Assembly: GCA_016192455.1 (NCBI GenBank)
Contig: JACPUC010000009.1
Coordinates: forward strand, 62,001-126,000
Source of the DNA: Candidatus Tectimicrobiota bacterium
Lineage (GTDB): Bacteria > JACPUC01
DNA length: 64,000 bases
Direction of reading: 5' to 3'
Shown in pieces: positions 5,733 through 26,062 of this stretch. The notes beneath the pieces are model-generated. The model did not search any database and was not told the DNA's origin. It saw nothing but the letters and a program-made list of their open reading frames with translations. Every line of letters begins with the position of its first letter. Position 1 is the first letter of the stretch. The position numbers and the translations under genes are program-made.

Positions 5733-6123
5733 CGCTGCCGGCGACGAGGCGGCGCGGACCTCGCCGCGGAGCCGGTGCCGGGCTGTCGGGGATGCCGGTC
5801 TCGGCGCCCGCCGATACCATCACCACTCAGCACGGGAGAGACGTTGTCCCTGCTTGTGGGCATGAGCAGGGGAGAGGGGTTCTGTGCGCTGCGGCCGCGG
5901 ACCACCGCCCAGGTTGGCGGTTCCCAGGTTCTTGGGTCACCCAGGTGCTGTTTCACAAATTCTATCGCAAGAATTTGCGAGGGAGCCTCGCCCCCTCGCG
6001 CACCCCGACTACGCGAGCTGCTGCGCAGCTCGCGGGGATTCGGGGGGTGGGGAAGCAAAGGTCTTGCGCAAAAACTCCCCGACCACATGGCCCGAAGAAG
6101 GCGTCCGATTAAGGATGGAATTT
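5733..6123. other. Intergenic region between regulator and UbiD gene
   Basis: No gene supported. A hairpin TCCCTGCT/AGCAGGGGA with a ten-base loop lies near 5849-5875 and may end the regulator transcript, although no T-tract follows. The right half is a copy of the modular palindromic repeat (5976-6080). I looked for a sigma-54 -24/-12 element and found no convincing one. Confidence 0.5.
5976..6080 (-). repeat. Modular palindromic repeat, copy C
   Basis: In minus orientation this matches the copies at 17.5 and 18.7 kb. The arm at 5976-6006 differs from theirs at one position over 31 bases. The core is CGCGAGCTGC / GCAGCTCGCG (6012-6034) with a three-base loop. The distal part (6050-6080) reads on the minus strand GGGGAGTTTTTGCGCAAGACC and resembles the left arm of copy A. 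Confidence 0.75.
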
Positions 6124-6137
6124 GTGTGACGTAACAC
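6124..6137. promoter_or_regulatory. Near-palindromic operator candidate upstream of UbiD gene 1
   Basis: GTGTGACGTAACAC is a 14-base near-perfect palindrome centred on ACGT, with one mismatched pair, ending 21 bases before the UbiD start codon. Its position suits a repressor site. The half-site resembles those of GntR- or CRP-type regulators, but the regulator cannot be named. Confidence 0.35.
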
Positions 6138-6158
6138 TAGTCAGGAGCGAGGTGCGGC

Positions 6159-7634
6159 ATGGCATTTCAGGATGGCTTGCGAGGCTGGATGAAGGCGCTC
6201 GAAAGCGAGGGGGAGCTGAAGGAGATCACCGCCGAGGTGGACTGGAACCTCGAGATGTCCGGCATCATGTGGCGCGCCTGCGAGGAGCACGGGCCGGCGC
6301 TCCTCTTCACCAACATCAAGGACCACCGCCACACCCTCTGCACGAAGTTCATCTCCGGCGCGCTGCACACCTATCGCCACGTCGCCCTCATGATGGGCCT
6401 GCCCAAGGAGACGCCGCCCAAGGAGCTCATCCTCGAGTACCGTCGGCGCACCGAGAAGCTTCTGCCCCCCGAGATCGTCGAGTACGGGCCGGTGAAAGAG
6501 AACATCATCCGCCGCGAGGCCGTGGACCTCTGGCAATTCCCGGCGCCCTTCTGGCACGCGCTGGACGGCGGACGCTACCTGAACACCTACTGCGGCACCG
6601 TCACCCAGGACCCCGACAACGGCTGGATCAACGTCGGCCTCTACCGCGGCATGGTGCATGACGACGGCAAGAGCATCGGCGTGCTCCTGTCGATGGGCTC
6701 GCACTGGGGACAGATGTGCCAGAAGTACCACGAGCGCGGCCAGGCCATGCCGGTGGCCGTCGTCTACGGCTGGGAGCCGGTGATGCCGCTCGTCGCCGCC
6801 GCTCTCTTCCCGCGCAACGTCGGCGAGTACGACGTCATGGGGGCGGTGCGCCAGAAGCCGGTGGAGCTGGTGAAGTGCGAGACGAACGACCTCCTCGTGC
6901 CGGCGACCGCCGAGATCGTCATCGAGGGCACGGTCTCCCTCGATCCCGCCACCTTCCGCATGGAAGGCCCCTTCGGCGAGTACCCCTGCTACTACGGCGG
7001 CACCCCAGCGCCGAAGCCGGTGCTGCAGGTCGACTGTATCACCCACCGCACCGATCCCATCCTGCAGGGCTCGCTGGAAGGCGCGCCCTACGACGACGGC
7101 GCCGTGGCGCAGTCGATCACCAAGTCGGCCTACATGTGGAACAACCTCGACCGCAATATCCCCGGCGTCGTCGATGTCTGGTGCCCCGCCATTACCCACG
7201 GCACCGACTGCTACGTCGCCATCAAGAAGACCTACCAGGGCCAGGCCAAGCAGGTGGCCGCCTGCATCTGGGGCAGCACCGGCGCCATCTACTCGGCGAA
7301 GATCGTCATGGTCGTCGATGACGATATCGACATCCGCAACCTCGAGGACATCCAGTGGGCCCTCAACTACCGCGTCTGGGACCCCGACGAAGACTTCTCT
7401 TTCTTCCGCGGCTGTCCCGGCTCCATGCTCGACCCCAGCGTGCCCCCGGAGCTGAAAGATGCGACCAAATTCGGCGCCGTGGGCCGCTGGCACCGCCTCT
7501 GCATCGACGCCACGAAGGACTGGCGCCTCACCCGCATCGAGCACTGGGGCGACCGCTTCCCGCCGCGCACCCTGCCCACGCGGCAGATTACGGAGCTGGT
7601 CAACCGCCGCTGGAAGGAGTATGGGCTGGGGTAG
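6159..7634 (+). CDS. UbiD-family prenylated-FMN-dependent decarboxylase 1
   Basis: 491 residues; the ATG is preceded by AGGAGCGAGG. UbiD enzymes use prenylated FMN and a metal to (de)carboxylate aromatic or alpha,beta-unsaturated acids. Seen here: INVGLYRG, placing the conserved Asn and Arg that bind metal/cofactor five residues apart, and EGPFGE with Glu269 and Glu274, the spacing of the catalytic glutamates in the fungal Fdc1 enzyme. The conserved core extends through to the C-terminal TRQITELVNRRWKEYGLG. No UbiX flavin prenyltransferase gene is in the window. A second family member lies 2 kb downstream, so both may serve one catabolic route. Substrate unknown. Confidence 0.9.
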   Translation: MAFQDGLRGWMKALESEGELKEITAEVDWNLEMSGIMWRACEEHGPALLFTNIKDHRHTLCTKFISGALHTYRHVALMMGLPKETPPKELILEYRRRTEKLLPPEIVEYGPVKENIIRREAVDLWQFPAPFWHALDGGRYLNTYCGTVTQDPDNGWINVGLYRGMVHDDGKSIGVLLSMGSHWGQMCQKYHERGQAMPVAVVYGWEPVMPLVAAALFPRNVGEYDVMGAVRQKPVELVKCETNDLLVPATAEIVIEGTVSLDPATFRMEGPFGEYPCYYGGTPAPKPVLQVDCITHRTDPILQGSLEGAPYDDGAVAQSITKSAYMWNNLDRNIPGVVDVWCPAITHGTDCYVAIKKTYQGQAKQVAACIWGSTGAIYSAKIVMVVDDDIDIRNLEDIQWALNYRVWDPDEDFSFFRGCPGSMLDPSVPPELKDATKFGAVGRWHRLCIDATKDWRLTRIEHWGDRFPPRTLPTRQITELVNRRWKEYGLG

Positions 7635-7724
7635 TCCCTATGGTCTCGCGGCGTCGAGGGCGGGCAAGACAGGGAGCCATGATTGCCGCGCGCCGCGGCG
7701 ACCCGCACGCAGGGCAGGAACGGT

Positions 7725-9548
<1,824 letters not shown>

Positions 9549-9699
9549 GAGGAGGGGCTGCTACCGAGTGCTGCGTGTCACCAGATCACTGACAACGTTG
9601 ATGCGCTACAAACAGTATGTTCAATGCCTTGGGGGCTGACCGACGGCCTCTCGGGAACTGTCTGGAACTCTCATGTCACGGAAAGGAGCGGTGAACAAC

Positions 9700-11238
9700 A
9701 TGAAAGACGTGCGTGATTTCATCGACGAAGTAGCGGCACTGAAGCAACTCAAGACCATCGGCGCCGACGTTGATTGGGACGAGGAACTGGGCGCCATTAC
9801 CTACCTGGTGGCGAAACGCAAGCCCAGCCCGTCGCTGCTCTTCGAGCGTATCAAGGATGCGCCGTCCGGCTACCGCGTGCTGACGAACATCATGGGATCG
9901 AGCCACGATCGCATCGCCCTGGCGCTGCGCCTGAAGTTGGGCCTGCCATTGATGCAGATGGTCGAACAGGTCAAGGACGCCTTCCACCGGCGCATTCCGC
10001 CGGTCGAGGTGCCTGCCGCCACCGCGCCGGTCAATGAAAACGTGTTCACCGGTGATGCCGTCGACGTGACCAAGTTCCCGGCGTGGAAAGCCTGGCCGCT
10101 GGACGGCGGGCGCTACATCGGCACCGCCTGCGTCACGGTCACGCGCGATCCGGACACGGGGCGCGTCAACCTCGGGACCTACCGGCAGATGGTGCAGGGA
10201 AAGCGGGAAATCAACGTCTACATGTCACCGGGCAAAGATGCCCTTCAGTTCATGGACCGTTACTGGAAACGTGGCGAGCCGATGCCGATTGCCGTGGCCT
10301 ATGGCATTGATCCGGCCCTGCTGATCGGCGGCGCGATCACGTTTCCCAACAACGCACCGGAATACGAGTGCACTGGCGGGATGATCGGCGCCCCCATCGA
10401 GGTGTTCACCGGCGACGTCACCGGCTTGCCAATACCGGCACGCGCCGAAATCGTCGTCGAGGGGTTCTTCCAGCCGAACACCTTTCGTCGCGAAGGCCCG
10501 ATGGGGGAGTTTCAAGCCTACTACGGGCGCCCCGGTGGCGCCACGCCCTTCATCGACGTGAAATGCCTGCGCCACCGCAACAATCCCATTCTGACCTGCG
10601 CGCTGATGGCCGATTACCCGGCATGCGAATCACACGATTTTCTGGCGATCGTGCGCTCGGCGAAGATTTGGAATGATCTCGACACGCTTGGGATTCCAGG
10701 CATCAAAGGAGTCTACTCGGTGCCGGCGGCGGGTGCCGGTATGGGCATGGTGATCGTGTCGCTGGAACAGCGGTATGCGGGGCACGTGGCGCAAACGCTG
10801 GCCCTGGCGGCGCAGTGCCCTGCCGCCGCCTACTTCACCAAATGGTTCATCGCCGTCGATGAAGACGTCGATCCCACCAATTTGGATGAGGTGACCTGGG
10901 CCATGGTGACGCGCTGCATCCCCACCGACGGGATCGACATCTTGCGGCAGACGTGGTCCACCTACCTCGATCCGTCGCGCAATCCGCCGGCCCTGCGCCC
11001 TTACGGTTCAAAGGTGTTGGTGAACGCCTGCAAGGAGCACCGCTTCCTGAAGACGTACTCGAAGCGCTTACTGCTGCGCGAGGAAACCTACGAGCAGGTG
11101 AGTGAACGATGGAGCGCTCTGGGTCTCGAGGGGAAGCCGCCGGTGATCAATCACTTCGAAACATTCGAGGGTGGGGAACCGGGACCTGATGGGGCGCGAC
11201 GCGATGACATGCCGGACCCCTCCTCGTTTCAAATGTGA
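9700..11238 (+). CDS. UbiD-family prenylated-FMN-dependent decarboxylase 2
   Basis: 512 residues from the ATG at 9700, which has AAGGAG 12 bases upstream and aligns with UbiD starts (MKDVRDFIDEV). An ATG at 9673 and a GTG at 9691 are also in frame but fit less well. RVNLGTYRQMV keeps the Asn and Arg of the cofactor site, and EGPMGE gives Glu265 and Glu270, so the catalytic set is complete. The relationship to the first UbiD protein (6159-7634) looks distant rather than a recent duplication, judging by sequence read side by side. Likely role: cytoplasmic decarboxylation of an aromatic or unsaturated acid; substrate unknown. Confidence 0.9.
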   Translation: MKDVRDFIDEVAALKQLKTIGADVDWDEELGAITYLVAKRKPSPSLLFERIKDAPSGYRVLTNIMGSSHDRIALALRLKLGLPLMQMVEQVKDAFHRRIPPVEVPAATAPVNENVFTGDAVDVTKFPAWKAWPLDGGRYIGTACVTVTRDPDTGRVNLGTYRQMVQGKREINVYMSPGKDALQFMDRYWKRGEPMPIAVAYGIDPALLIGGAITFPNNAPEYECTGGMIGAPIEVFTGDVTGLPIPARAEIVVEGFFQPNTFRREGPMGEFQAYYGRPGGATPFIDVKCLRHRNNPILTCALMADYPACESHDFLAIVRSAKIWNDLDTLGIPGIKGVYSVPAAGAGMGMVIVSLEQRYAGHVAQTLALAAQCPAAAYFTKWFIAVDEDVDPTNLDEVTWAMVTRCIPTDGIDILRQTWSTYLDPSRNPPALRPYGSKVLVNACKEHRFLKTYSKRLLLREETYEQVSERWSALGLEGKPPVINHFETFEGGEPGPDGARRDDMPDPSSFQM

Positions 11239-11261
11239 GCGCGACCGGAAGCGCAAAAGAA

Positions 11262-11304
11262 GCGCGCCCCGGGGATGGCCGATTGGGCTGCTCCCGGGGC
11301 GCGC
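11262..11304 (-). terminator. Intrinsic terminator of the NMT1-type binding protein gene
   Basis: A perfect 12-base inverted repeat, GCGCGCCCCGGG / CCCGGGGCGCGC, with a 19-base loop. On the minus strand the stem is followed by TTCTTTT, as in Rho-independent termination. It lies 24 bases beyond the stop of the minus-strand gene and also just after the convergent UbiD gene, so it may block readthrough both ways. Confidence 0.7.
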
Positions 11305-11327
11305 GTCTGGCTGCGTCGCAGCAAGGG

Positions 11328-12350
11328 TTACATCCCCGCCGCCTTCTTGACGAAACTCACATCCGCAAATTTCTCGATTGGCGTTTTCTTCTTCACCGCA
11401 CCCACTTCGAAGAAGTAGTCCTGCATGGCACTGATGCTCTGCAGATTGGGCATGCCGTATGGGTGCAGATAAAAGGGTACGGCGGACTGGATGATGTCCT
11501 TGGGAACCTTCGTCCACTTATGGAGAATGTCGACCACCTCCGCATCCTTCATCCCACGCTCGTTATAGTAGCGCACCGCCTTGACGTAGGCGTTCATGTA
11601 TTTCTGGGCAGCGGAGCGGCGCTCGCGCGCGAAGGCGCCGTTGTACATGATCGTGGCAACCTGAAGGTCTTTCGAGGTGTCGAAATCAGCAGGGGAAAGG
11701 AAGCGTACCCCCACTCCCGTCTTCTCTATTTGGGCACCCCATGGCTCAGCATTTCCCACAGCGTCAACGGCCTTGTTCTTCAAGGCCGTCAGTTGGTTCG
11801 GAAAGCTGATGAATTTCCAATTCACATCTTCCAGAGAGAGTCCTGCCGACTGCAGAGCACGCCCCACCCAGAATATCGTAACGTTCATCGGTGCATTGGT
11901 GGCGAGGGTCAATCCCTTGAAATCCTTGATTGATTTAACCCGCCCACTGTCGATGAGATCCTTTCTGACGACAAGCTGCGTAAAGCCGTAGCCTTTCCGC
12001 GTTTGCCCCTTATCGGCGACCACGAGGACGTCACTCCCCTGCGCCAGGGCGTTAAAGAATCCCGCGCCCATGCTGCCGGTGGCAACCTCGATCTGTCCCG
12101 TAGCCAGCGGCGCCGCCATCTTTGCTCCGGATACAAATCGAACGTATTCAACTTTCATCCCTTGTTCAGCAAAGAACCCTTTCTCTTCGGCCAGGTAAAT
12201 CGGAGCGAAGGAGATGACGGCCAGGTCGCCCTGCTTGATGGATTCTTGAGCCACGGCGCGCGCAGCGCTGAGGCTTACCTGGCCAAGCGCGGCAACTGCG
12301 GAGAATGTTGCGAGCAAACCGAGCGCGTGGAATACGCGTCTCACCTTCAT
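11328..12350 (-). CDS. NMT1/THI5-type ABC transporter substrate-binding protein
   Basis: 340 residues. The start at 12350 (MKVRRVF) follows a GGGGGGCAGG run and opens a signal peptide with a hydrophobic core ending near ARAVAQES; longer in-frame starts would bury it. The mature part shows the SsuA/THI5 fold signature: FAPIYLAEEKGFFAEQGMKVEY, SGAKMAAPLATGQIEVATGS and KGLTLATNAPMNV. Relatives bind nitrate, sulfonates, taurine or pyrimidine precursors in the periplasm and pass them to an ABC permease. No permease or ATPase gene lies nearby, so it is an orphan here. Ligand unknown. Confidence 0.85.
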   Translation of the reverse strand: MKVRRVFHALGLLATFSAVAALGQVSLSAARAVAQESIKQGDLAVISFAPIYLAEEKGFFAEQGMKVEYVRFVSGAKMAAPLATGQIEVATGSMGAGFFNALAQGSDVLVVADKGQTRKGYGFTQLVVRKDLIDSGRVKSIKDFKGLTLATNAPMNVTIFWVGRALQSAGLSLEDVNWKFISFPNQLTALKNKAVDAVGNAEPWGAQIEKTGVGVRFLSPADFDTSKDLQVATIMYNGAFARERRSAAQKYMNAYVKAVRYYNERGMKDAEVVDILHKWTKVPKDIIQSAVPFYLHPYGMPNLQSISAMQDYFFEVGAVKKKTPIEKFADVSFVKKAAGM

Positions 12351-13106
12351 CGCCTGCCCCCCCTGAGTTAAGGCGAACGTTGGATACCACCCGTGCAGTC
12401 CGCGATCATGCCGCGCCACGTGGAGCGTCACAAGCGGGCGTCGCAAAAGATGATCTTTTCGGAACTCACACGGCTGGCCTGCAAGGCGAACGTGCTGCCG
12501 GGGTCACCCATGCAATGGTGAAGTTCCAGTACCCCTCGCGCGGTCTGGACGCCTGCCCATTGTCCTCGAAGTCCTGCCCATATCTGAATATACTAACCTC
12601 CTCTGCACCCCAAACTCAACCGCAAATTACGCGATTCTCCGCTGAGACCTGGCAAGGAGAGGTGGCGAGGTCCCCACGTCCGGTCAAGGTGGCCCTGGTG
12701 ATCTGCACCTCGTCGATATGCGGCGATTCAGCCTTGTTGCGGGAGGTGATCCGTGCCATGCTCAAGCTCCACCCTTGGCTTCTGCGTGGCCGGCCCCGCG
12801 CGATGTTGTAACTTCTGCAATTGCAACGTCTTCTCCCAAAGGGTGGTTCTTTTTCAAGGCGGAATCGCTGAGGGGAGGTCTCGGATTGGCAACGACGGCG
12901 CCAAGGTAGGTAACGAACCCAGTATCGTATCCCGTAAGTTCCATCAACCAATTCTAAGAGGGAACCTTCTCCCCTGGCGCACCCCGTTTACGCGAGCTGC
13001 TGCGCAGCCTGCGGGGAGGAGGGGTGTGGGGGAGCATGGGCCCTCACAGGCCCCTTGCCAAAGCAGCGAGCAACCCCGCACATATGTGAGCGAATTTGTG
13101 AGCACT
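12351..13106. other. Intergenic region upstream of the binding-protein gene
   Basis: No gene supported on either strand. The minus-strand promoter of the binding-protein gene should lie in the first 150 bases, but no clear -35/-10 pair was found. Copy D of the modular palindromic repeat occupies 12956-13040. Confidence 0.5.
12956..13040 (-). repeat. Modular palindromic repeat, copy D
   Basis: Minus orientation. The left part reads CCTGGCGCACCCCGTTTACG and the core CGCGAGCTGC / GCAGCCTGCG (12991-13014) has two mismatches compared with copy C. This is the most diverged of the five clear copies, but the arm, core and spacing are in the same order. Confidence 0.6.
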
Positions 13107-13275
13107 ACGTCGCCGACCAGGAGCATGGCCGCCAGGCGTTGGATCTCCTCGACGGTTCACCCCCAATGAAGCGGAGATTGAGGAGGCGCTCATCCAGGCC
13201 GCCATCGTCTGCGGGTTGCGCCGGCGTCACGCTGCCGACGCCTGCCGCCATGCCGTGCTCGGTGAGGAGTTAGCC
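13107..13275 (+). pseudogene. Possible gene fragment with carboxymuconolactone-decarboxylase-like residues
   Basis: One frame gives DQEHGRQALDLLDGSPP; after a one-base shift the next gives NEAEIEEALIQAAIVCGL and then DACRHAVLGEEL. The helix-rich EIEEALIQAAIVCG segment resembles the AhpD/carboxymuconolactone decarboxylase fold. No start codon with a ribosome-binding site and no continuous frame exist, so if real it is a remnant. The assignment is tentative. Confidence 0.25.
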
Positions 13276-13447
13276 CTACCGTCACCTTCATAATTGGACA
13301 CCGCGCTGATCTCGTTCGCAATGTAACGGCCGCGGGGCGCGGGTGATGCATCAGATGGGTCGCGAGCTCTGCCGCGACGCGCAGTGTTGCCCGGCGGCCT
13401 GGCGGTCGAGCTAAAGGAAACTCACACGAGAGGGGGGATAGAGGACG

Positions 13448-14584: not shown

Positions 14585-14686
14585 GCCGGGTGGATGCAGG
14601 CGGCGCGCTGCGGTGCTCGGGGCAACATTCCTCGAAGGGCGACGTCGGGGCCCGAACCTAGCCTCTCCTTGGCCGGGCGTCGAGCC

Positions 14687-15655: not shown

Positions 15656-15900
15656 GGCAGCGGTCCTCTCCCGGCCCAAAGGCGCGGCGCTGACGGCGCG
15701 CGGTCTCGCGCGACCGCAAGGGATTCATGACAGTCCAAACCGCTGGACACCACGCTCATATTTCCCGCCCGCGACATTTTCCGCTCACGCCCTCGGATGC
15801 CGCCCACGCTGGCGCCGCGCGGCGTGGGGCAGACCACCCCGCACGCGAGCGCACAGCCGATGCGCCGCTCGGGGAGCAATCCACGATGCCGCGCGGCGCT

Positions 15901-16164
15901 CTACGGCGGGCTGAAACCCGGCAGCTCATCGAGGCTCAACTGCAGGTGCAGCGGCTCGAGCTGGCGCGCCAGGAATTTCCCCTTCACGCCGTTGTCCAGC
16001 AGCACGTACACTTCCAGCCGCCCGGCCCCGGAGGCGTCGGCTGCTTCCGCGACCGGATGGACGCCGGTGACCGTCCCCCTTTCTCCGACGTACGCCGCCC
16101 GCCGACACTCGCGCACCCGCACCCGATCACCGGCCCGGTAGCAAGGCTCCCCGCGCGCCCTCAT
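15901..16164 (-). CDS. Small KOW-like conserved hypothetical protein
   Basis: 87 residues. The ATG at 16164 follows AGAGGGGAG by about six bases; a GTG at 16191 has an AAGGAGG box but too close. The middle reads GDRVRVRECRRAAYVGERGTVTGVH, resembling the small beta-barrel (KOW/SH3-like) opening seen in many RNA- or protein-binding domains, followed by LEVYVLLDNGVKGKFLARQLEPL. No signal peptide or membrane segment. Function unknown. Confidence 0.6.
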   Translation of the reverse strand: MRARGEPCYRAGDRVRVRECRRAAYVGERGTVTGVHPVAEAADASGAGRLEVYVLLDNGVKGKFLARQLEPLHLQLSLDELPGFSPP

Positions 16165-16554
16165 TGGAGCTCCCCTCTGGGAAGGATTCACCTACCCTCC
16201 TTCACCTCCAGGGAATCGGTACCACGCCTTCCGCCTTCACTCAACGGTGAAGCGGCATGGCTTCACTCCCCCCGCGGCTCCGTCTCCCCGCCGAAGGGGG
16301 ACGCCGCGATCGCCGTTCGATCCCGCGGCAGGCCATTCTCAATCGCTTTTTCTTTGTCTTTTTTTTGCAACGAACGACTTTTTCCTTGATCTTCGTGTTT
16401 TCTTCATACATCTTAGAAGCAACGGCAGAGGTCGGCAAGCGCTCGGTGGGCGTTCGGGCGCCGTACGCCGCGCTCGGGCGCCCCGGGAGGCGAGGGGGCA
16501 AACGGCGCGGCAACGGCTCATGCTGACAGGCCCCCCTGCACGAGGAGCACCACG
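16165..16554. promoter_or_regulatory. lexA upstream region with a strongly T-rich segment
   Basis: Bases about 16335-16430 are a sharp AT-rich, pyrimidine-rich island (runs of T5, T8 and T5) in GC-rich DNA. A TTGATC...TACATC pair with a 15-base spacer (16387-16413) is a weak promoter candidate. No inverted repeat that could be a LexA box was recognised. A GAGGAG ribosome-binding site lies just before the lexA ATG. Confidence 0.4.
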
Positions 16555-17199
16555 ATGTACGTCACGAAGCGGCAGCGGCAAATCTACGAGTTCATCAAGG
16601 CCAGCATCGAGACCAACGGCTACGCTCCCAGCCTGCAGGAAATCGGTGCTCAGTTCAACCTCTCCTCCCTCGCCACCATCCACAAGCACCTCACCAACCT
16701 GGAGGAGAAGGGCCTCATCGTGCGCCACTGGAACCGCAGCCGCGCCATCGAGCTGACCACCCCGCCAAGCCCCACCACCACGCAGCGCGGCGGCCGCCCC
16801 GTGTCCTCCGCCGTGGAGCTGCCGCTGCTCGGGCGCATCGCCGCCGGCCAGCCGCTGGAGGCCGTGCAGGACAGCGAGAGCATCCTCGTGCCGCCGGACA
16901 TGGTCGGCCGCCAGAAGACCTACGTCCTGCGCGTCACCGGCGACTCGATGATCGAGGAGCACATCCGCGAAGGGGACTACGTCATCGTCGAGGAGCGCCA
17001 AACCGCCTCGAACGGCGACACCGTCGTCGCCCTCATCGACGGCGACAGCGCCACGCTGAAGAAGTTCTTCCGCGAGGGCGACCGCATCCGCCTGCAGCCG
17101 GCCAACGCCACCATGCAGCCGATCTACGTCACCGGCGACCGCCTCGCCATCCAGGGCATCGTCATCGGCATCCTGCGGAAGTACCGGGCCGGGAGGTAG
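16555..17199 (+). CDS. lexA: LexA repressor
   Basis: 214 residues. The N-terminal winged helix-turn-helix (1-65; PSLQEIGAQFNLSSLATIHKHL) binds operators. The C-terminal S24 peptidase-like domain shows the cleavage dipeptide Ala97-Gly98 in GRIAAGQP, nucleophile Ser131 (VTGDSMIEEHI) and general base Lys169 (ATLKKF). RecA filaments trigger self-cleavage, derepressing SOS genes. Nearby dinB and, further away, recN and recQ are possible targets. Autoregulation is usual, but no operator was identified. Confidence 0.97.
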   Translation: MYVTKRQRQIYEFIKASIETNGYAPSLQEIGAQFNLSSLATIHKHLTNLEEKGLIVRHWNRSRAIELTTPPSPTTTQRGGRPVSSAVELPLLGRIAAGQPLEAVQDSESILVPPDMVGRQKTYVLRVTGDSMIEEHIREGDYVIVEERQTASNGDTVVALIDGDSATLKKFFREGDRIRLQPANATMQPIYVTGDRLAIQGIVIGILRKYRAGR

Positions 17200-17211
17200 G
17201 GAGGCGACGTG

Positions 17212-17460
17212 ATGCTTTGGAAGGAACGCAATCAGGTGAAGCGCCGGATGTGGGGGCTGACGCTTAGGCGGCAGATGCGGCGGCTGCCGCTGCCGAGCGT
17301 GCTGGAGGCGGCCGAGCTGCGGCGCCGGCGGCAGGCGCAGCTCATCGCCCTGGCGCTGGCGGCCGAAAGCGGCGCGCGACAATTCCACAATGGAAGCAAG
17401 CCGCCATCATCCATGAACGTGGCCAATGCCCGCTCGTGTTGCTTCGCAAACGTCCGCTAA
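17212..17460 (+). CDS. Small basic ORF after lexA, possibly truncated
   Basis: 82 codons starting at an ATG (GTG at 17209 also possible) 12 bases past the lexA stop, with GGGAGGC as ribosome-binding site. Residues 1-57 are Arg/Leu-rich and helical-looking (LRRQMRRLPLPSVLEAAELRRRRQAQL). The last 25 residues look random and run up to the palindromic repeat. It may be the 5' part of a gene cut off when the repeat and methyltransferase gene arrived. No homologue is recognised; it could also be non-coding. Confidence 0.35.
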   Translation: MLWKERNQVKRRMWGLTLRRQMRRLPLPSVLEAAELRRRRQAQLIALALAAESGARQFHNGSKPPSSMNVANARSCCFANVR

Positions 17461-17470
17461 TAAATTGGAT

Positions 17471-17605
17471 GCGTTGCAGGCGACATTTTTGTGGGGGACC
17501 CTTGCTCCCCTGCCGCCCCAGCGGGGAAGGCTCCACGCCCATTCCCCGCGAGCTGCGCAGCAGCTCGCGGAGAAGGGGTGCGCGAGGGGGCGCGGCTCCC
17601 TCGCA
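17471..17605 (+). repeat. Modular palindromic repeat, copy A (left of DNA methyltransferase)
   Basis: Left arm CGTTGCAGG, then GTGGGGGACCCTTGCTCCC. The core is a perfect 11-base inverted repeat CCGCGAGCTGC / GCAGCTCGCGG (17546-17570) with a three-base loop. The right arm (17574-17605) is identical over 32 bases to 18715-18746. It lies 53 bases before the methyltransferase start. Confidence 0.85.
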
Positions 17606-17658
17606 CGAAAACTCCCTTCGCCAGAACCAGTATTCGCTCTTCGCTCGCGGGATAACCT

Positions 17659-18534
17659 ATGAAGCAAAAACTCCCGTCACAAATTTACCTCGATGAAAAG
17701 TCGCTACACCATGACAATGGCAGCATTGCACGCCGCCGCTCGAAACTCATCGCCTTCGGTTGGTATGGTGGTAAGTTCAATCACCTCAATTGGCTGCTTC
17801 CTTTATTGCCGAGGTGCCATCATTATTGCGAGCCGTTTGCCGGCTCAGCCGCGGTCCTGTTCAATCGTGATCCCTCTCCTGTTGAAACGTACAACGATCT
17901 TGATGGCGAGGTCGTCAACTTTTTCCGTGTCTTGCGCGAGCAGAAAGAGAAGCTGCTCGAGTCCATAGGGCTTACGCCATTTTCCAGGGAAGAATTCTAC
18001 TTTGCCGTAACGGATAGCGAAGAACCGTTATCCGATTTGGAACACGCGCGCCGTTTCTTTGTGCGGGCGCGACAGGCGCGCACGGGTCTGGCGCAAACCG
18101 CCTCGCTCGGGCGCTGGGCGAACTGCAAGAACACCAGCCGCGCCGGCATGTCCGGGGTGGTATCGCGCTGGCTCGGCAGCGTGGAGATGCTGCCGGAAAT
18201 CGCCGCGCGCCTCCTGCGTGTGCAGATCGAAAACCGCCCGGCGGTGGATGCCATTCGCTTGTATGACAGCCCTTCGACCCTGTTTTACTGCGATCCGCCG
18301 TATGTTCACGACAGCCGCGGCGACAGCAAAGCTTACGGTTTCGAGATGAATGACCTCGCGCACCAGGAGCTGGCGCGGCTCCTTCAGCAGTGCAAGGGGA
18401 TGGTCGCTCTTTCGGGGTATCGTTGCGATCTGCTGGATTCCGTCTATAAAGACTGGCGCCGCCATGACGCCCCTGCGAAATACTGCCACTCCATCAAGAA
18501 ACCGCGTCAGGAGGCGCTCTGGGTGAACTATTAA
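17659..18534 (+). CDS. DNA adenine methyltransferase, Dam/D12 class
   Basis: 291 residues. It has the class order of Dam-type N6-adenine methyltransferases: WYGGKFNHLNWLLPLLP (lysine-bearing N-terminal motif), EPFAGSAAVLFN (AdoMet binding) and catalytic DPPY at 212-215. It transfers a methyl group from S-adenosylmethionine to adenine in DNA. No restriction endonuclease gene is adjacent, so it looks like an orphan enzyme. Base composition of the first 400 bases is visibly lower in GC than its neighbours, and the gene is bracketed by repeat copies A and B within a lexA-dinB locus. Both suggest acquisition by transfer. The ribosome-binding site is weak. Target sequence unknown. Confidence 0.9.
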   Translation: MKQKLPSQIYLDEKSLHHDNGSIARRRSKLIAFGWYGGKFNHLNWLLPLLPRCHHYCEPFAGSAAVLFNRDPSPVETYNDLDGEVVNFFRVLREQKEKLLESIGLTPFSREEFYFAVTDSEEPLSDLEHARRFFVRARQARTGLAQTASLGRWANCKNTSRAGMSGVVSRWLGSVEMLPEIAARLLRVQIENRPAVDAIRLYDSPSTLFYCDPPYVHDSRGDSKAYGFEMNDLAHQELARLLQQCKGMVALSGYRCDLLDSVYKDWRRHDAPAKYCHSIKKPRQEALWVNY

Positions 18535-18606
18535 CGCTTGCTGAGTCGCGACATGCTTGTTGATTATGCTAGTAGTGCGTCTCACGAGTTCGTTGATACA
18601 TTTAAT

Positions 18607-18746
18607 TCGTTGCAGGTGGCATTGGCAGGAAGATTTCTTGTGGGGAACCCTTGCTCCCGCACATTCCCAATCCGCGCGAGCGGTAGGGGCGGTTCACGAA
18701 CCGCCCCTACGAGTAGGGGTGCGCGAGGGGGCGCGGCTCCCTCGCA
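18607..18746 (+). repeat. Modular palindromic repeat, copy B (right of DNA methyltransferase)
   Basis: Same orientation and same outer parts as copy A: CGTTGCAGG, then GTGGGGAACCCTTGCTCCC, and the 32-base identical right arm (18715-18746). The GAGCTGC core is replaced by a different palindrome of the GTAGGGGCGG family (18683-18710). Confidence 0.85.
18683..18710. repeat. GTAGGGGCGGTTC palindrome inside copy B
   Basis: 28 bases, palindromic except for one central pair: GTAGGGGCGGTTC, then A/C at the centre, then GAACCGCCCCTAC. It differs by one base from the perfect copy at 26035-26062. Confidence 0.85.
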
Positions 18747-18899
18747 GAAAAACTGTCTAAGATTGGCAACAATCTTGCTAATTTCGTTAATGAACGTATG
18801 AGGCAGGAAATTAGGAAATCAACGCCCCCCTTCTCGCTGCCGCGCAGGCGTGGCGGCGCCGGAAGGAGTGGGGGGGCCTGCCTCGCCAGAAGATCACCC

Positions 18900-20180
18900 A
18901 TGCGGCAGATTCTCCATGTTGACATGGATACGTTCTTCGTGGCGGTGGAGCAGCGCCTCGATCCGTCGCTGCTCGGCAAGCCGGTCATCGTCGGCGGGCA
19001 TCCCGAGGGGCGCGGCGTGGTGGCGGCGTGCTCCTACGAGGCCCGCGCCTTCGGCGTGCACTCCGCCATGCCGCTGGCGCAGGCTTTGCGCCTCTGCCCG
19101 CGCGCCGTCTTCCTGCGCGGCGCCTATGACAACTACCTGCGCGCCAGCCTGGAAGTCTTCCGCATCCTGAAGCAGTTCACCCCCCTCGTCGAGCCGACCT
19201 CCCTCGACGAGGCGTACCTCGACGTCAGCGCCTGCCTGCGCCTGCACGGCCATGCCATGGCGATCGCGGAGACGATCCACGAGCGCATCGCCGGGCGGCT
19301 GGCGCTGCCCGCCTCGGTGGGTCTCGCCACCAGCAAGATCGTGGCCAAGGTGGCCTCGCGGCGCGCCAAGCCGAACGGCATCCTGCGCGTCCTTCCCGGC
19401 GCGGAGGCGGCGTTCCTGGCGCCGCTCTCCCTGCGCGAGCTGCCGGGCATCGGGCCGAGCACGGCGGAGCGCCTCCAGAGCCTCGGCCTGCGCGCCATCG
19501 GCGAGCTGGCGCACCTGCCGCCCGCCATGCTCGAGACCGTCTTCGGCAAGACAGGTCGCCTGCTGACGCAGCGCGCCCGCGGCATCGACGCCTCCCCCGT
19601 GGTCACCGGCTCCGTGGTCAAGTCGGTCGGCCACGAAACCACCTTTGAAACGGATACCGCCGACCGCGGGGAGCTCGAAGCGGTCCTCGCCCACCTCACC
19701 GAGAAGGCCACGCGCCGCCTGCGCCGCCTCCCCATGCAGGCCCGGACCGTCACCCTGAAGCTGCGCTACGCCGATTTCACGACCGTCAGCCGCTCCCGCA
19801 CCCTGCGCGCCGCCACCGACCTCGACACCGAGGTCTATCGCACCGCCGGCCGCCTCCTGCGCAGCCTGTTGACGCGCCGCGTGCGCGTCCGCCTCCTCGG
19901 CGTCAGCCTCTCGAACCTCTGCGAGGGCGAGCGCCAGCTCGACCTCTTCGGCGAGGGGCGCTGCGCCAAGTACCGCGGCTTCTACCGCGCCGTCGATACC
20001 CTGCGGGACCGGTTTGGCTTCGATGTGGTGACCGTGGGGCGCGCCGCCCTCTTGCAGCCGGCCGCGCGGCGGGGCGAGCGCCACCTCAACCCGTTTCGAC
20101 CCGCGCTTGACCAGGAAGAGAGGAAGAAGGGAGAGGGCACGCCGGAGGAGGGCGGGCCGTCGTTCCAGGACGCGGCCTGA
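18900..20180 (+). CDS. dinB: DNA polymerase IV (Y family)
   Basis: 426 residues from the ATG at 18900, which gives the canonical DinB start MRQILHVDMDTFFV; an ATG at 18798 would add 34 unconserved residues. Catalytic acids are Asp8 and the SLDEAYLDVS motif. Palm, fingers, thumb (LRELPGIGPSTAERLQSLG helix-hairpin-helix) and little-finger domains follow. The C-terminus ends in an acidic/charged tail (EERKKGEGTPEEGG) rather than a recognisable beta-clamp motif; QLDLF (near 346) is the probable clamp-binding peptide. It performs error-prone bypass of lesions and is normally SOS-induced, consistent with lexA 1.7 kb upstream. Confidence 0.95.
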   Translation: MRQILHVDMDTFFVAVEQRLDPSLLGKPVIVGGHPEGRGVVAACSYEARAFGVHSAMPLAQALRLCPRAVFLRGAYDNYLRASLEVFRILKQFTPLVEPTSLDEAYLDVSACLRLHGHAMAIAETIHERIAGRLALPASVGLATSKIVAKVASRRAKPNGILRVLPGAEAAFLAPLSLRELPGIGPSTAERLQSLGLRAIGELAHLPPAMLETVFGKTGRLLTQRARGIDASPVVTGSVVKSVGHETTFETDTADRGELEAVLAHLTEKATRRLRRLPMQARTVTLKLRYADFTTVSRSRTLRAATDLDTEVYRTAGRLLRSLLTRRVRVRLLGVSLSNLCEGERQLDLFGEGRCAKYRGFYRAVDTLRDRFGFDVVTVGRAALLQPAARRGERHLNPFRPALDQEERKKGEGTPEEGGPSFQDAA

Positions 20181-20224
20181 GAGAGCCGCCGGCGCCGGCC
20201 GCCAGCGGCAACTTAACGACAGCC

Positions 20225-22279
20225 TCAAATCCGGTGGATGAGTCGGTTCGGCGCGCCATCCGGCCAGGAGCCGAAGTAGCGCAGCACCCCCTCGGGCGGG
20301 CGCCGCCGCGACCACGCCGCGACGAACTCTGCGTAGGGGAGGGCTTGTTCCTTGCGCCGGGCGCGCGCCGCCTGCCGCCGGCGCTGCGTCTCGCCGTCGT
20401 CGACTTTCAGGGTGGCGGGATTGTAGGCCACGCGGTAGACCTGCTCGATCGCCCAGGGTGACACGGCGCCTTTGCGCAGGTCCTCCATGAGCGCCTGGGG
20501 ATCGCGTTCCAGCACGTCGCCGTAGCCTCCGCCGCCGGCCACGTTGACGATGAAAAGATCGCCCCGTTCCAGGATGCGCGGCCGCCGCGTCTTACTCTCC
20601 ACGGTGTAGGCGCCGCTGATCGTACGCTCCCGCATGAGCTGCTTCGAGCTGGTCGGCAGGTCGAGGGCGCTCTGCGCCAGCTTCTCGAAAAGGTTGCTGT
20701 GGCGCACCTGCAGGCCGGGATGGATGGCGTGCGGGTAGCCCCCGAAGAGGCCGCTGTGCGACGGGAACTTGCTCTCCTTGGCCGCCTGCTGGTAGCTCGA
20801 GCGCGGCACGAGGTGCGGGGCGTAGGCGGCGGAGAGACCGGCGCCGCCCCGGTACTTGCCATGCCCGCAGCTATCGGCGAGCATGCGCATGAAGAGGTGC
20901 AGGTGGGGCTGATCGTTCTCCAGGTCCTCCACGTCCGCCCCCTTGCCGTGCGGGCCGTGGCTGAAGCCGAAGCAGTCGATGCCGTCCGCGTCGAACCGGG
21001 CTGGTCCCCCCTGGGCGTTGAGGGCGTAGGACATCGAATCGGTGACTCGCACGCCGTACTGGTTCTCGCCGGCCACCACCGCCCCGAAGGCGGCGGAATT
21101 GATGCTGGCGCAGACGAGCTCGCGCGTCGGGCTGTCGAACATCATCTTGCCGAAGGTCACCGCCAGCGGCTGCCAGAGGTTCATCATCACGAAGACCGAG
21201 TTGGCCACGGCGGCATCGTGGCTGGCGTTGAACACGCACCCTTGCGGGGCCACGAAGTGCAGGGGCGCGAAGGCCCCGGAGGAGAGGGGGAAGTCGTGGA
21301 AGGGGTAAAGGTAGAGGTAGACGGCCGCGGCGGCCCGCACGATGTGCAGGTAGCAGTGGTACGAGCCTTCGTTCTCCGGTGAGCTGCCCGTCAGGTCGAT
21401 GGTAATCTCGTCCCCATGCTTGATGAGAGCGAAGGAGACGCGCAGCAGGGCGTCATCGAGGCCGATGGTGTCGCTGAAGACGGTGTGGCGGTAAGTGCCG
21501 TCGTTCCATTGCCCGATGCGCTCGCGCACGGCCGCCTCGGTGTGGCTCAGCATGCGCCGGAAGAGGCCGTGCAGGAACGGTACGCCGCGCTTTGCGGCAA
21601 GCTCCTGGAGGCGCACCCGGATGCGGTCGCAGGCGGCGACGCGGGCGCGCACGTCAAGCATCTGCATGCGCGGCGCCCGCCCGACCATGTTTGACATCAT
21701 CTCCAGCAGGTCATCGCGCAGGCGGTAGTTCTCACCGATGCGGATAGGCGTCAGGCGCATGCCTTCGTCGTAGCGGCTGCGGGCGCTCACCGGCATGCCC
21801 CCCGGCTCGATGGCGCCGGTCTCCGGCTGGTGCGCCGCCGAGAGCGCCCAGGCGATGATCTCTCCCTCGTGGAACACCGGCATGATGGCGATCTGGTCGG
21901 GGTTGTGGATGCCGCCGTAGAGGGCGTCGTTGCAGTAGAAGATGTCCCCCTCCCGCACCCCGACGGTGGGGTTGTCCTTCCAGTAGCGCAGGATGAACTT
22001 GATGGGGATGATGCCGGTGATGCAGTGCAGGTAGGTGCCGAGCACCGCCACCACCTGGTCACCCACCGGGCTGTAAATCGCCGTGACGATGTCGCCGGCA
22101 TGGATGAAGGCCGAGACCCCCAGGCGCGTCAGCACCTCCTTGGACTCCTGGCAGATCATCTGCAGCTTCTCGCTGTAAATCTCGTAGTCGCCGAGCTGCA
22201 GCTTCTCCATGCAGGCGTACTCGTACTGCGTGATCGGTTCCGGTTTCACCTGATCGAGAAGCGAGAAATCCATCAACAT
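20225..22279 (-). CDS. Hydantoinase B / acetone carboxylase alpha-like subunit
   Basis: 684 residues from MLMDFSLLDQ (ATG 22279, AGGGGCGG upstream); in-frame codons further up look non-coding. HyuB-family signatures: GDIFYCNDALYGGIHNPDQIAIMPVF, IDLTGSSPENEGSY, and the C-terminal GGGGYGDVLERDP. The family includes N-methylhydantoinase subunit B and the alpha subunits of acetone and acetophenone carboxylases. These work with a HyuA-type ATP-binding subunit, usually encoded next door; none is visible here. It converges on dinB with a 44-base gap. Exact reaction unknown. Confidence 0.85.
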   Translation of the reverse strand: MLMDFSLLDQVKPEPITQYEYACMEKLQLGDYEIYSEKLQMICQESKEVLTRLGVSAFIHAGDIVTAIYSPVGDQVVAVLGTYLHCITGIIPIKFILRYWKDNPTVGVREGDIFYCNDALYGGIHNPDQIAIMPVFHEGEIIAWALSAAHQPETGAIEPGGMPVSARSRYDEGMRLTPIRIGENYRLRDDLLEMMSNMVGRAPRMQMLDVRARVAACDRIRVRLQELAAKRGVPFLHGLFRRMLSHTEAAVRERIGQWNDGTYRHTVFSDTIGLDDALLRVSFALIKHGDEITIDLTGSSPENEGSYHCYLHIVRAAAAVYLYLYPFHDFPLSSGAFAPLHFVAPQGCVFNASHDAAVANSVFVMMNLWQPLAVTFGKMMFDSPTRELVCASINSAAFGAVVAGENQYGVRVTDSMSYALNAQGGPARFDADGIDCFGFSHGPHGKGADVEDLENDQPHLHLFMRMLADSCGHGKYRGGAGLSAAYAPHLVPRSSYQQAAKESKFPSHSGLFGGYPHAIHPGLQVRHSNLFEKLAQSALDLPTSSKQLMRERTISGAYTVESKTRRPRILERGDLFIVNVAGGGGYGDVLERDPQALMEDLRKGAVSPWAIEQVYRVAYNPATLKVDDGETQRRRQAARARRKEQALPYAEFVAAWSRRRPPEGVLRYFGSWPDGAPNRLIHRI

Positions 22280-22499
22280 CGCTTCCGCCCCTTCTATGCC
22301 GCAGCCCCTCGGCCCCCATCGCCGGCCCAGAGGATGAACCGGGTGGGGGGCGAGGCGGCAAACGTCAATGCATCTGTTCTTCGTCAACTATGGTACGACG
22401 AGAGCGAAAAGTACAGGGGGAATATGCCCCGCGACGGAGGGGACCACCGCCCCGCAAGGCGCCGGGGGCGCGGCCGGAGGCAGACGGGAGCGCCGCGCG
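22280..22499. other. Intergenic region between purD and the HyuB-like gene
   Basis: 220 bases on the shared minus-strand path. No gene seen. ATGGTACGACGAGAGCGAAAAGTACAGG is a moderately AT-rich patch at 22388-22415 that may carry the promoter of the HyuB-like gene. Confidence 0.4.
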
Positions 22500-23774
22500 C
22501 TAGCCGGCGCGCTCGGCTTTGGCGCCGATATCGGTGCGGTACTGCGCGCCCTCCCAGGAGATGCAGTGCGCGGCGGCGTAAGCGCGCCGGCGGGCTTCGG
22601 CGAAGGTGGGCGCCACGGCGGTCACTCCCAGCACCCGGCCGCCGTTGGTCAGCCACGCCGCGCCCTGGCGCCGGGTGCCGGCATGGTAGATGGTAACACC
22701 CTCCACCTTGCCTGCCTCGTCGAGACCGGAGATTGCCCTGCCCTTCTCGTACGCCCCCGGGTAGCCGCCCGAGGCCATGACGACGCAGACCGCCGACGCC
22801 GCGCGCTGCTTCAGGGGCAGCGTGTGGAGTCGTCCCTCGGCCGTGGCCATCAGGACCTCCAGCAGGTCGCCGTCGAGGAGCGGCAGGATGACCTGGGCCT
22901 CGGGGTCTCCGAAACGAACATTGAACTCCAGGACGCGCAGGGCGCCCTCCTTGATCATCAAGCCAGCGTAAAGGATGCCGCGGAACGGCGAGCCTGCGGC
23001 GGCCATGCCGCGCACCACCGGCTGCATCACCTGCCGCATGGCGGCCTCGGCCAGCGCCCGCGTGACGATGGGCGCCGGGGCGTACGCCCCCATGCCGCCG
23101 GTGTTGGGGCCGCGGTCGCCGTCGCCGATCGGCTTGTGGTCCTGCGAGGGGGCCAGGGGCGCAATGGTCTCCCCATCCACCAAGGCGATGAAGGAGGCTT
23201 CCTCACCCTCGAGGAACTCCTCGACCAGGAGGCGCTCGCCCGCGGCGCCGAACTCGCGCTCCTCCATCATGCGGCGGATGGCCTCCTCGGCCTGCCGCCG
23301 ATCCTGGCAGATGATGGCTCCCTTGCCCGCCGCCAGGCCGTCCGCCTTCACCACCAGGGGCGCCCGCATGCGCGCCGCGGCCTGGCGCGCCTCGCCGGGT
23401 GTGGCGCAGAGGTGCGCCTCGGCGGTGGGGACGCCGCAGCGGCGCATGACCTGCTTGGCGAAGACCTTGCTCCCTTCGAGCGCGGCGGCGGCGCGGCTCG
23501 GCCCAACGATGCGCAAGCCGGCGCTCTGAAAGGCGTCGACAATCCCCAGCGTCAGCGGCGCCTCCGGCCCCACCACCGTGAGGTCGATCGACTCGCGCCG
23601 GGCAAAATCGTAGAGCGTGGCCACATCTTCGGCGGCAATCGGCAGCAGCCGCGCCTGCAGGCCGATGCCGTCGTTCCCCGGCGCGCAATAGAGTTCCGGC
23701 GCGGCGGCGCTCTGGGCGAGCTGGGCGACGAGCGCATGCTCCCGCCCACCCGCGCCGACGACGAGGACCTTCAT
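22500..23774 (-). CDS. purD: Phosphoribosylamine-glycine ligase (GAR synthetase)
   Basis: 424 residues, start MKVLVVGAGGREHAL at 23774 with GGAG upstream. ATP-grasp enzyme: N-terminal domain with the GGREHA motif, PSRAAAALEGSK, ATP-grasp lysines in PLVVKADGLAAGKG, GRGPNTGGMGAYAP-like loop (GDRGPNTGGMG), and metal ligands in EFNVRFGDPEAQ. It catalyses the second step of de novo purine synthesis. purH lies just upstream on the same strand, separated by 210 bases that hold a palindromic repeat, so cotranscription is uncertain. Confidence 0.97.
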   Translation of the reverse strand: MKVLVVGAGGREHALVAQLAQSAAAPELYCAPGNDGIGLQARLLPIAAEDVATLYDFARRESIDLTVVGPEAPLTLGIVDAFQSAGLRIVGPSRAAAALEGSKVFAKQVMRRCGVPTAEAHLCATPGEARQAAARMRAPLVVKADGLAAGKGAIICQDRRQAEEAIRRMMEEREFGAAGERLLVEEFLEGEEASFIALVDGETIAPLAPSQDHKPIGDGDRGPNTGGMGAYAPAPIVTRALAEAAMRQVMQPVVRGMAAAGSPFRGILYAGLMIKEGALRVLEFNVRFGDPEAQVILPLLDGDLLEVLMATAEGRLHTLPLKQRAASAVCVVMASGGYPGAYEKGRAISGLDEAGKVEGVTIYHAGTRRQGAAWLTNGGRVLGVTAVAPTFAEARRRAYAAAHCISWEGAQYRTDIGAKAERAG

Positions 23775-23984
23775 ACCCTGCTCCCGCGACCTCGCTGCCC
23801 TCTTACTTCTGCTATCGCCGGGCCTCAAACCTGGGGGATCATTGATCCCCCAGACCCCCTCTCCTCGCGAGCTGCGCCGCAGCTCGCGTAAGCGGGGTGC
23901 GCGAGGGGAGATTGTCCCCTCGCATCATTTCTTCGCTGCATCGAAGTGTGGAACCTTGGTCCGCGAGTTTCTAAGGCGCGACGA
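23775..23984. other. purH-purD intergenic region with hairpins
   Basis: 210 bases, almost half occupied by repeat copy E. A perfect 23-base hairpin CTGGGGGATCA / TGATCCCCCAG (23831-23853, one-base centre) lies downstream of purH on the transcribed strand and could stabilise or attenuate the purH transcript. Confidence 0.6.
23831..23924 (+). repeat. Modular palindromic repeat, copy E
   Basis: Core CGCGAGCTGCG / CGCAGCTCGCG (23866-23888, one-base centre), then the right arm CGGGGTGCGCGAGGGG ending in CCCCTCGCA. The left arm is replaced by a perfect hairpin around GGGGGATCA. The order and spacing match copies A-D. Confidence 0.8.
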
Positions 23985-26034: not shown

Positions 26035-26062
26035 GTAGGGGCGGTTCGCGAACCGCCCCTAC
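26035..26062. repeat. Perfect 28-base palindrome, GTAGGGGCGGTTCG family
   Basis: GTAGGGGCGGTTCG followed by its exact reverse complement. One base different from the palindrome embedded in repeat copy B at 18683-18710, showing that this unit occurs alone as well as inside the larger element. Confidence 0.9.

What the first reader, a model, noticed from the sequence alone, without database searches (positions are those of the whole stretch)
5976..23924. Modular intergenic repeat family with conserved arms and exchangeable core palindromes
Five copies (5976-6080, 12956-13040, 17471-17605, 18607-18746, 23831-23924) share the arm GGGGTGCGCGAGGGG...CCCTCGCA. Copies A, C, D and E have a CGCGAGCTGC-type hairpin in the centre, but copy B carries a GTAGGGGCGG palindrome that also exists alone at 26035-26062. 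Copy E swaps the left arm for a GGGGGATCA hairpin. Weaker traces lie at 39381-39421 and 61441-61515. All are intergenic and occur in both orientations. Nested palindromes suggest REP/MITE-like units that insert in one another or are shuffled by a nuclease such as a TnpA-REP (RAYT) protein.
Basis: seen in the sequence. Interest (0 to 1): 0.72.

Follow-up and report, generated by a model that had tools for sequence, protein, structure and literature searches.

The report
Mobile repeat with swappable central hairpin
This bacterium carries a large family of short, non-coding, probably mobile DNA repeats whose central hairpin has been exchanged for other, unrelated hairpin repeats while the rest of the element stayed the same.

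Summary
The repeat family is real and genome-wide: 75 exact matches of one arm pattern in the 4.46-Mb genome, 0 for the reversed-pattern control. The full unit is a MITE-like element of about 196-213 bp with inverted ends that folds as three hairpins, H1-[P stem(H2)]-H3. H2 is a replaceable slot: among the 75 copies, 24 carry a GTAGGGGCGGTTCGCGAACCGCCCCTAC-type palindrome, 1 a CCCTCACCC/GGGAGAGGG palindrome, and the remaining 50 the CGCGAGCTGC class. Near-identical backbones carry different cores; in two pairs, one apparently two alleles of one locus, the break points are CACCCC and GGGGTG. The GTAG palindrome is a 'double-foot' REP that also stands alone and lies in frame inside a RAYT gene of this genome, as published for TnpAREP subclass 2.4 (PMC6006769). 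REPs inside other palindromes are also published (PMC3733652). That RAYT does the swapping is inferred; gene conversion or template switching is a close rival. New variant of a known kind.

The parts
5943..6139 (-). Copy A, full-length element with both inverted ends (reader gave 5976-6080)
   Evidence: ends recognised, 197 nt; right-arm profile E 8.5e-12
5977..5999 (-). Copy A, hairpin H3 (10 bp, 3-nt loop)
   Evidence: fold; sequence
6012..6034 (-). Copy A, slot H2 with CGCGAGCTGC-type core
   Evidence: fold; sequence
12956..13040 (-). Copy B, degenerate; CGCGAGCTGC-type core, not GTAG
   Evidence: 82% identical to A over 79 nt; profile E 0.0097; fold not significant
17471..17605 (+). Copy C, CGCGAGCTGC-type core
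   Evidence: profile E 6.8e-9; fold z -3.1
18569..18746 (+). Copy D; left limit is the CTAG of a recognisable left end; reader gave 18607-18746
   Evidence: profile E 2.1e-10; sequence
18683..18710 (+). Copy D, slot filled with GTAGGGGCGG-type palindrome; left arm CGCGAGC of the old H2 remains just before it (junction class X)
23831..23924 (+). Copy E: H1 23831-23853 (GGGGGATCATTGATCCCCC type), H2 23866-23888, H3 23901-23923
   Evidence: profile E 2.5e-7; fold z -7.8
26035..26062 (.). Solo GTAG double-foot REP, in the second repeat context (..GCATGCCGATG[REP]GGTCGATGGGATGG.. on the minus strand)

Best explanation
A non-coding, MITE-like element with inverted ends makes three hairpins in a row, H1-[P(H2)]-H3. 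The tip of the middle hairpin (H2) is a slot that has repeatedly been refilled with other palindromic repeats, chiefly the GTAG double-foot REP that belongs to a RAYT of this genome. Shown: the family, its anatomy, at least three unrelated palindromes in the slot, swaps between near-identical backbones, and identity of the GTAG core with the palindrome inside the RAYT gene. Inferred: the REP entered the slot by RAYT cutting and joining at an exposed hairpin on single-stranded DNA; cores then spread by transposition of the carrier and by template switching or gene conversion between copies, with the short CACCCC/GGGGTG P stem as the matching ends. No host function is required; the place mostly behind genes is best read as tolerance, with possible side effects on mRNA ends.
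For: 75 exact arm matches against 0 for the control; 49 profile hits in 1.08 Mb against 0 in two controls; inverted ends in 21 of 75 copies; folds. Slot contents of the 75: 24 GTAG, 1 CCCTC, 50 remainder class. Swapped pairs: C1 end/C22 start, 135/135 and 176/183 nt of shared flank, CCCTC against CGCGAGCTGC-type core; C1:320 kb/C1:325 kb, 248/259 and 60/64 nt, GTAG against CCCTC; L003/L052, 97/98 and 66/67 nt; L017/C1:224718, 99/104 and 61/64 nt; L017/L054, 94/103 and 60/68 nt. Of 50 GTAG palindromes in the sample, 29 are in a slot. The exact GTAG 28-mer lies in frame in the C4 RAYT gene. Junction class X keeps half of the old hairpin and in 4 of 8 copies has CT just before GTAG, the dinucleotide at which TnpAREP cuts (PMC8266576, passages). 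REPs inserted within palindromes are on record (PMC3733652 section 7).
Against: CT precedes GTAG in only 4 of 55 GTAG slots. The CCCTC palindrome also swaps and has no known RAYT. The C4 RAYT is below the curated cut-offs of Pfam and NCBIfam. The RAYT gene is not flanked by arms. No parent transposase was found for the carrier and no target duplication was resolved. The best allele pair lies at two contig ends of a draft assembly. Covariation in H2 is marginal.
Confidence: 0.5

Rival explanations
1. No RAYT is involved in the swaps: polymerase stalling at palindromes leads to template switching or gene conversion between copies, guided by the CACCCC/GGGGTG stem and short matches such as ATCCC, which copies in whatever palindrome the donor has.
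For: Two pairs share break points exactly at CACCCC and GGGGTG whatever the incoming palindrome. Three palindromes of different kind use the same slot. A solo REP has flanks CCATCCC/AAGCC like those of class Y (C1:349193). H3 also takes foreign palindromes (C1:206892, C1:211790, C20:29269).
Against: It does not by itself explain why the commonest incomer is the very palindrome inside the genome's RAYT gene, nor its 64 exact copies.
Confidence: 0.35
2. No recent exchange: the element has old subfamilies with different middle hairpins, each amplified on its own.
For: Junction class Y goes largely with one or two backbone types.
Against: Within one young subfamily, copies 96-99% alike outside the slot carry three kinds of core.
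Confidence: 0.05
3. The hairpins are kept because they serve the host, as transcription terminators or mRNA 3' stabilisers, and any strong palindrome in the slot will do.
For: 43 of 49 hits are outside genes called by a simple GC-frame method, and convergent gaps exceed divergent ones 16 to 3 (random points 1346 to 1367). H3 keeps pairing through A-T/G-C changes.
Against: Terminal inverted repeats, copies on both strands, copies of 96-99% identity and a mobile REP as filler point to mobile DNA; avoidance of promoters explains the gap bias too.
Confidence: 0.15
4. The swapped cores are assembly errors of a draft genome.
For: The genome is a draft in 31 contigs whose ends often share 141-bp overlaps, so it was probably assembled with 141-mers; the key pair lies at two contig ends.
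Against: C1:320 kb and C1:325 kb lie inside one contig with different cores, L052 and others are also inside contigs, and core types come with recurring junctions in many copies.
Confidence: 0.08

Closest known systems
GTAG-tagged REPs inserted within palindromes (Di Nocera et al. 2013, PMC3733652; section 7 and passages read)
   Same: REPs of the GTAG kind sit inside other palindromes (A. variabilis GTAG-15, T. roseum GTAG-23) and in frame in some genes.
   Different: There the target palindromes are simple; here the target is the middle hairpin of a MITE-like element and the old palindrome is replaced, by more than one kind of palindrome.
TnpAREP (RAYT) subclass 2.4 with double-foot REPs (PMC6006769; abstract and passages read)
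   Same: The REP has GTAG at one foot and CTAC at the other; the cognate-like REP lies in frame inside the RAYT gene after the HUH motif.
   Different: The paper passages do not describe REPs filling the slot of a second repeat. Membership in subclass 2.4 was not tested with its own models.
Bacterial MITEs (named in PMC3733652: NEMIS, RUP, ERIC, Nezha and others)
   Same: 70-300 bp, inverted ends, no coding capacity, dispersed, intergenic, strong secondary structure.
   Different: No parent transposase found here and no target duplication resolved; the central hairpin is replaceable.
BIMEs and REPINs (passages in PMC6006769)
   Same: Mosaic of palindromic units, intergenic.
   Different: Their unit is two REPs of one kind in inverted orientation; here H1, H2 and H3 are different sequences in a fixed order.

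Membership tests
GTAG REP, double-foot type (for the GTAG core) | Short palindrome with GT[AG]G at one foot and C[TC]AC at the other | tested here: met
   28-mer GTAG-GGGCGGTTCGCGAACCGCCC-CTAC, 64 exact copies; definition from PMC6006769
GTAG REP, double-foot type (for the GTAG core) | High copy number, mainly between genes | tested here: met
   50 sites in 1.08 Mb, 44 of 50 outside called genes
GTAG REP, double-foot type (for the GTAG core) | Associated RAYT gene | tested here: met
   palindrome inside the C4 RAYT-like gene; NF047646 E 2.6e-16 but below cut-off
GTAG REP, double-foot type (for the GTAG core) | Cut and joined by the cognate RAYT | not testable with these tools
   needs purified protein
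MITE (for the whole element) | 70-300 bp, non-coding, dispersed | tested here: met
   196-213 bp in 21 copies with both ends; 75 exact arm matches over the genome
MITE (for the whole element) | Terminal inverted repeats | tested here: met
   left TAGTGTTACGTCACACAAATTC, right GAATTTGTGAAACAGCACAC (imperfect), 21 of 75 copies
MITE (for the whole element) | Target site duplication | tested here: inconclusive
   both ends show CTAG-like bases (left C19 T19 A17 G19 of 21; right C19 T15 A10/G9 G17 of 21), nothing repeated further out
MITE (for the whole element) | Parent transposase with the same ends | tested here: inconclusive
   not found; a contig end (C7) has a transposase-like C-terminus and another end sequence (IS630 label recalled)
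BIME/REPIN | Two REPs of one kind in inverted orientation | tested here: not met
   H1, H2 and H3 are different sequences
Copies A-E as RAYT substrates | RAYT gene flanked by the same repeats | tested here: not met
   no arm or H2 copy next to the C4 RAYT; nearest arm-like site next to a REP at C4:52631

The most novel reading that the evidence does not exclude
The element is a mobile carrier with a true cassette position for palindromes: RAYT-type enzymes (or a hairpin-dependent repair process) repeatedly and precisely replace the tip of the middle hairpin between CACCCC and GGGGTG, so that REPs travel on an unrelated DNA transposon; carriers of similar build exist in other lineages.
Probability: 0.3. 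Interest if true: 0.65.

Novelty: new variant of a known kind. Interest (0 to 1): 0.42.

Why it matters
How REPs move is still poorly understood (abstract of PMC8266576, as listed). Here near-identical copies, and probably two alleles of one locus, differ mainly in the palindrome in the slot, with break points that can be read to the base. That gives a natural before-and-after record against which RAYT insertion and template switching can be tested, and it shows REPs hitch-hiking in a second, unrelated mobile repeat.

Tried and rejected
Plasmid collection: no match. The element was not found in 385 other genomes searched with copy A, nor the arm pattern in 97 others; all of those are only same-domain relatives, so absence says little. 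The lineage of the genome was not identified (partial 16S at C31:153-715).

Rejected: that the arm similarity is chance; that CT next to GTAG is a general signature of the junctions (4 of 55); that the RAYT gene is flanked by the arms. The IS630 label for the carrier is recalled and unproven. A first pattern for other REP types had the wrong spacer and was repeated. I first took the REP inside the RAYT gene for new; PMC6006769 already reports it. The count of 216 comes from a loose rule and is not used; pairs (3) to (5) come from that call, chosen from the 30 best-scoring pairs printed. 'H2a' is the remainder class; 49 of its 50 members are in register with the CGCGAGCTGC consensus. Literature searches; none of the listings showed replacement of the core of a MITE, but most subscription papers are not held.
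Full report
Observation. The window holds a real repeat family. Repeat search pairs copies A to E at 77-94% over 35-88 nt. In the whole genome (G000, 4.46 Mb, 31 contigs; the window is C8:62001-126000) the arm pattern GGGGTGCGCGAGGGN{3,14}CCCTCGC has 38 + 37 exact matches, and the pattern read backwards has none. A profile of the right arm built from those 75 finds 49 places at E<=1e-3 in a 1.08-Mb sample (contigs C1, C7, C20 and the window) and none at E<=1 in shuffled or reversed DNA. The GTAGGGGCGG core is in D, not B.

Anatomy. In the orientation of copy C the unit reads: left end (C)TAGTGTTACGTCACACAAATTC; about 70 bp; H1 (GGGGGACCCTTGCTCCCC, GGGGGATCATTGATCCCCC or similar); CACACCCCC; slot; GGGGTGC; H3 (GCGAGGGGGC-NNN-GCTCCCTCGC); about 15 bp; right end GAATTTGTGAAACAGCACAC. 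In 21 of the 75 copies both ends could be recognised by a mismatch-tolerant match, and these measure 196-213 bp. The rest have decayed or different outer parts, and some look like the H2-H3 part alone. Single-strand DNA folding gives H1, then a stem P made by ACCCC/GGGGT around H2, then H3; copy E is clearest (z -7.8, no shuffle as good), copy B is not significant (25 of 200 shuffles as good). In the 74 of 75 copies with the common spacing, the three H3 pairs that the search pattern leaves free are paired in 99.1% of cells (shuffled mean 93.1%, maximum 95.9%), with G-C in 52 and A-T in 19 at one pair. For H2 the excess is marginal (96.9%; shuffled mean 95.6%, maximum 96.7%).

The slot. Of the 75 copies, 24 carry a GTAGGGGCGG..CCGCCCCTAC palindrome, 1 a CCCTCACCC..CCCTCTCCC..GGGAGAGGG..GGGTGAGGG palindrome, and the remainder, 50, are CGCGAGCTGC-type or variants (49 of those 50 in register). 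The sample shows further CCCTC cores followed by GGGGTGCGC or GGGGCGCGC at C1:214086, 308692, 325949 and 364802, and a remnant at 339741. The GTAG cores fall into three junction classes. Y: CATCCC|GTAG..CTAC|AAGGC and close forms, 15 copies. X: the left arm CGCGAGC of the old H2 is kept, 5 copies, copy D among them. Z: TGTTCC|GTAG..CTAC|CAGTC and alike, 4 copies. A looser scan gives 8 copies of class X.

Exchange between near-identical copies. (1) The end of contig C1 and the start of contig C22 share both flanks: 135 of 135 nt from the right flank up to CACCCC, and 176 of 183 nt from GGGGTG to the left flank; one has the CCCTC core, the other a CGCGAGCTGC-type core. (2) C1:320.0-320.5 kb and C1:325.6-326.2 kb, inside one contig, match at 248/259 nt up to CACACCCC and at 60/64 nt from GGGGTG, with a GTAG and a CCCTC core. 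(3) L003 and L052: 97/98 and 66/67 nt, CGCGAGCTGC against GTCGGGGCGG..CCGCCCCGAC core. (4) L017 and C1:224718: 99/104 and 61/64 nt. (5) L017 and L054: 94/103 and 60/68 nt. Many contig ends in this assembly share overlaps of about 141 bp, so pair (1) is probably two variants of one locus that the assembler left apart, but it is also the pair most open to artefact. Pairs (2) to (5) are copies at different places, not alleles.

The GTAG palindrome and its enzyme. In the sample, 50 sites match it with up to 4 changes: 29 have GGGGTG[CT]GC (one mismatch allowed) within 25 nt on one side, 21 do not. Several of the 21 stand in a second repeat context..GTGGTTCCTTGCATGCCG..[REP]..GGTCGATGGGATGG.., where two places carry another palindrome, GTAGGGGCGGGGCTTGCCCCGCCC (C1:190095, 324697). 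The exact 28-mer occurs 64 times in this genome and in 6 of 385 other genomes, all only same-domain relatives (1 to 35 copies each). On C4:31097-31702 lies a RAYT-like gene (NCBIfam REP_Tyr_transpos, E 2.6e-16, 59.8 bits, below the 80-bit cut-off; Y1_Tnp E 0.0039, below cut-off). Its codons after the HUH motif NHLHG contain exactly this palindrome in frame (RRGGSRTAPT). In G282 a homologue 52-55% identical holds, at the same site, that genome's only exact copy of the same 28-mer. Of the nine near-full-length homologues of this clade put through (own genome included), eight have a hairpin scoring 8 or more that starts 34-52 nt after the motif; the ninth, L317, was not scored by that script, but holds GTAGGGGCGACGCATGCGTCGCCCCTAC inside the gene by coordinates (C1:96108-96135). 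[quoted passage not shown] A second RAYT on C2 (NF047646, 85 bits, above cut-off) and two distant G040 homologues are of another kind: the C2 one and L323 show no hairpin of that strength near the motif, L320 has one of score 8.

Elsewhere. In G040, 3 of 5 GTAG REPs examined (of 7 in that genome) stand between inverted repeats with CTAGTG- or CTAAGTG-like ends that score above all 27 control positions; in G137 none of 5 (of 35) and in G275 one of 5 (of 8) exceed their controls (control maxima 21, 36 and 20). So REPs inside elements with inverted ends are not unique to this genome, on a very small sample.

Place in the genome. With a simple GC-frame gene caller of my own, 43 of 49 profile hits are outside genes (random points: mean 37.0 of 49 inside). 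Convergent gaps outnumber divergent ones 16 to 3, while random points give 1346 to 1367. This fits elements tolerated behind genes.

How it most likely works. The carrier is a MITE-like element. Its middle hairpin, when single-stranded, offers an exposed tip. The GTAG REP most likely entered that tip by RAYT cutting and joining; class X, with half of the old hairpin left and CT before GTAG in 4 of 8 copies, looks closest to the original event, since E. coli TnpAREP cuts at CT (PMC8266576, passages). Cores then spread when carriers transposed and when copies exchanged their tips, with the P stem CACCCC/GGGGTG as the matching ends. The RAYT step and the transposition step are inferred. Across 55 GTAG slots only 4 have CT before GTAG, and the swapping of the CCCTC palindrome needs another explanation, so template switching or gene conversion alone is a serious rival.

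Known or new. REPs inside palindromes (PMC3733652, section 7), REPs inside RAYT genes (PMC6006769) and MITEs with strong hairpins are known. The replacement of one palindrome by unrelated others in a fixed slot of a MITE-like carrier, read from near-identical copies, was not in the papers listed or passages read. I file it as a new variant of a known kind.

Noticed in passing
G000:C4:31097-31702 (L032:1177-1785): RAYT-like gene with the exact GTAG 28-mer in frame after its HUH motif; homologues in G137, G275 and G282 hold other palindromes at the same site. Published as a feature of TnpAREP subclass 2.4 (PMC6006769).
   Followed up: partly
C1:110203, C1:190095, C1:324432, C1:324697, window 26035-26062 and others: A second, unrelated repeat context (GTGGTTCCTTGCATGCCG..REP..GGTCGATGGGATGG) also carries either the GTAGGGGCGGTTCGCGAACC or the GTAGGGGCGGGGCTTGCCCC palindrome at one place.
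   Followed up: partly
C1:206892, C1:211790, C20:29269: H3 is split by foreign palindromes of the CTGCCTGC..GCAGGCAG kind between GTGCGC and GCGAGG.
   Followed up: no
L294, L300, L303, L306 (genome G040): The same 28-nt REP stands between inverted repeats with CTAGTG- or CTAAGTG-like ends in an unrelated genome; 3 of 5 places looked at exceed the controls.
   Followed up: partly
L099:14165-14296 (end of contig C7): C-terminus of a transposase, by recall IS630-like, whose end reads TAGTACTTAGTTGCGTAATTC; a possible but unproven relative of the carrier's mobiliser.
   Followed up: no
window 16555-20180: Copies C and D fill the two gaps of a gene row that I read, by recall and without a database search, as LexA, a DNA adenine methylase and a DinB-type polymerase.
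   Followed up: no
L133, L146, L176, L177, L189: Gammaproteobacterial MAG contigs with tandem runs of (GAGCC)CTCAGC-GGGGTGCGCGAGGGG..CCCCTCGC-like units, another repeat with the same kind of hairpin.
   Followed up: no
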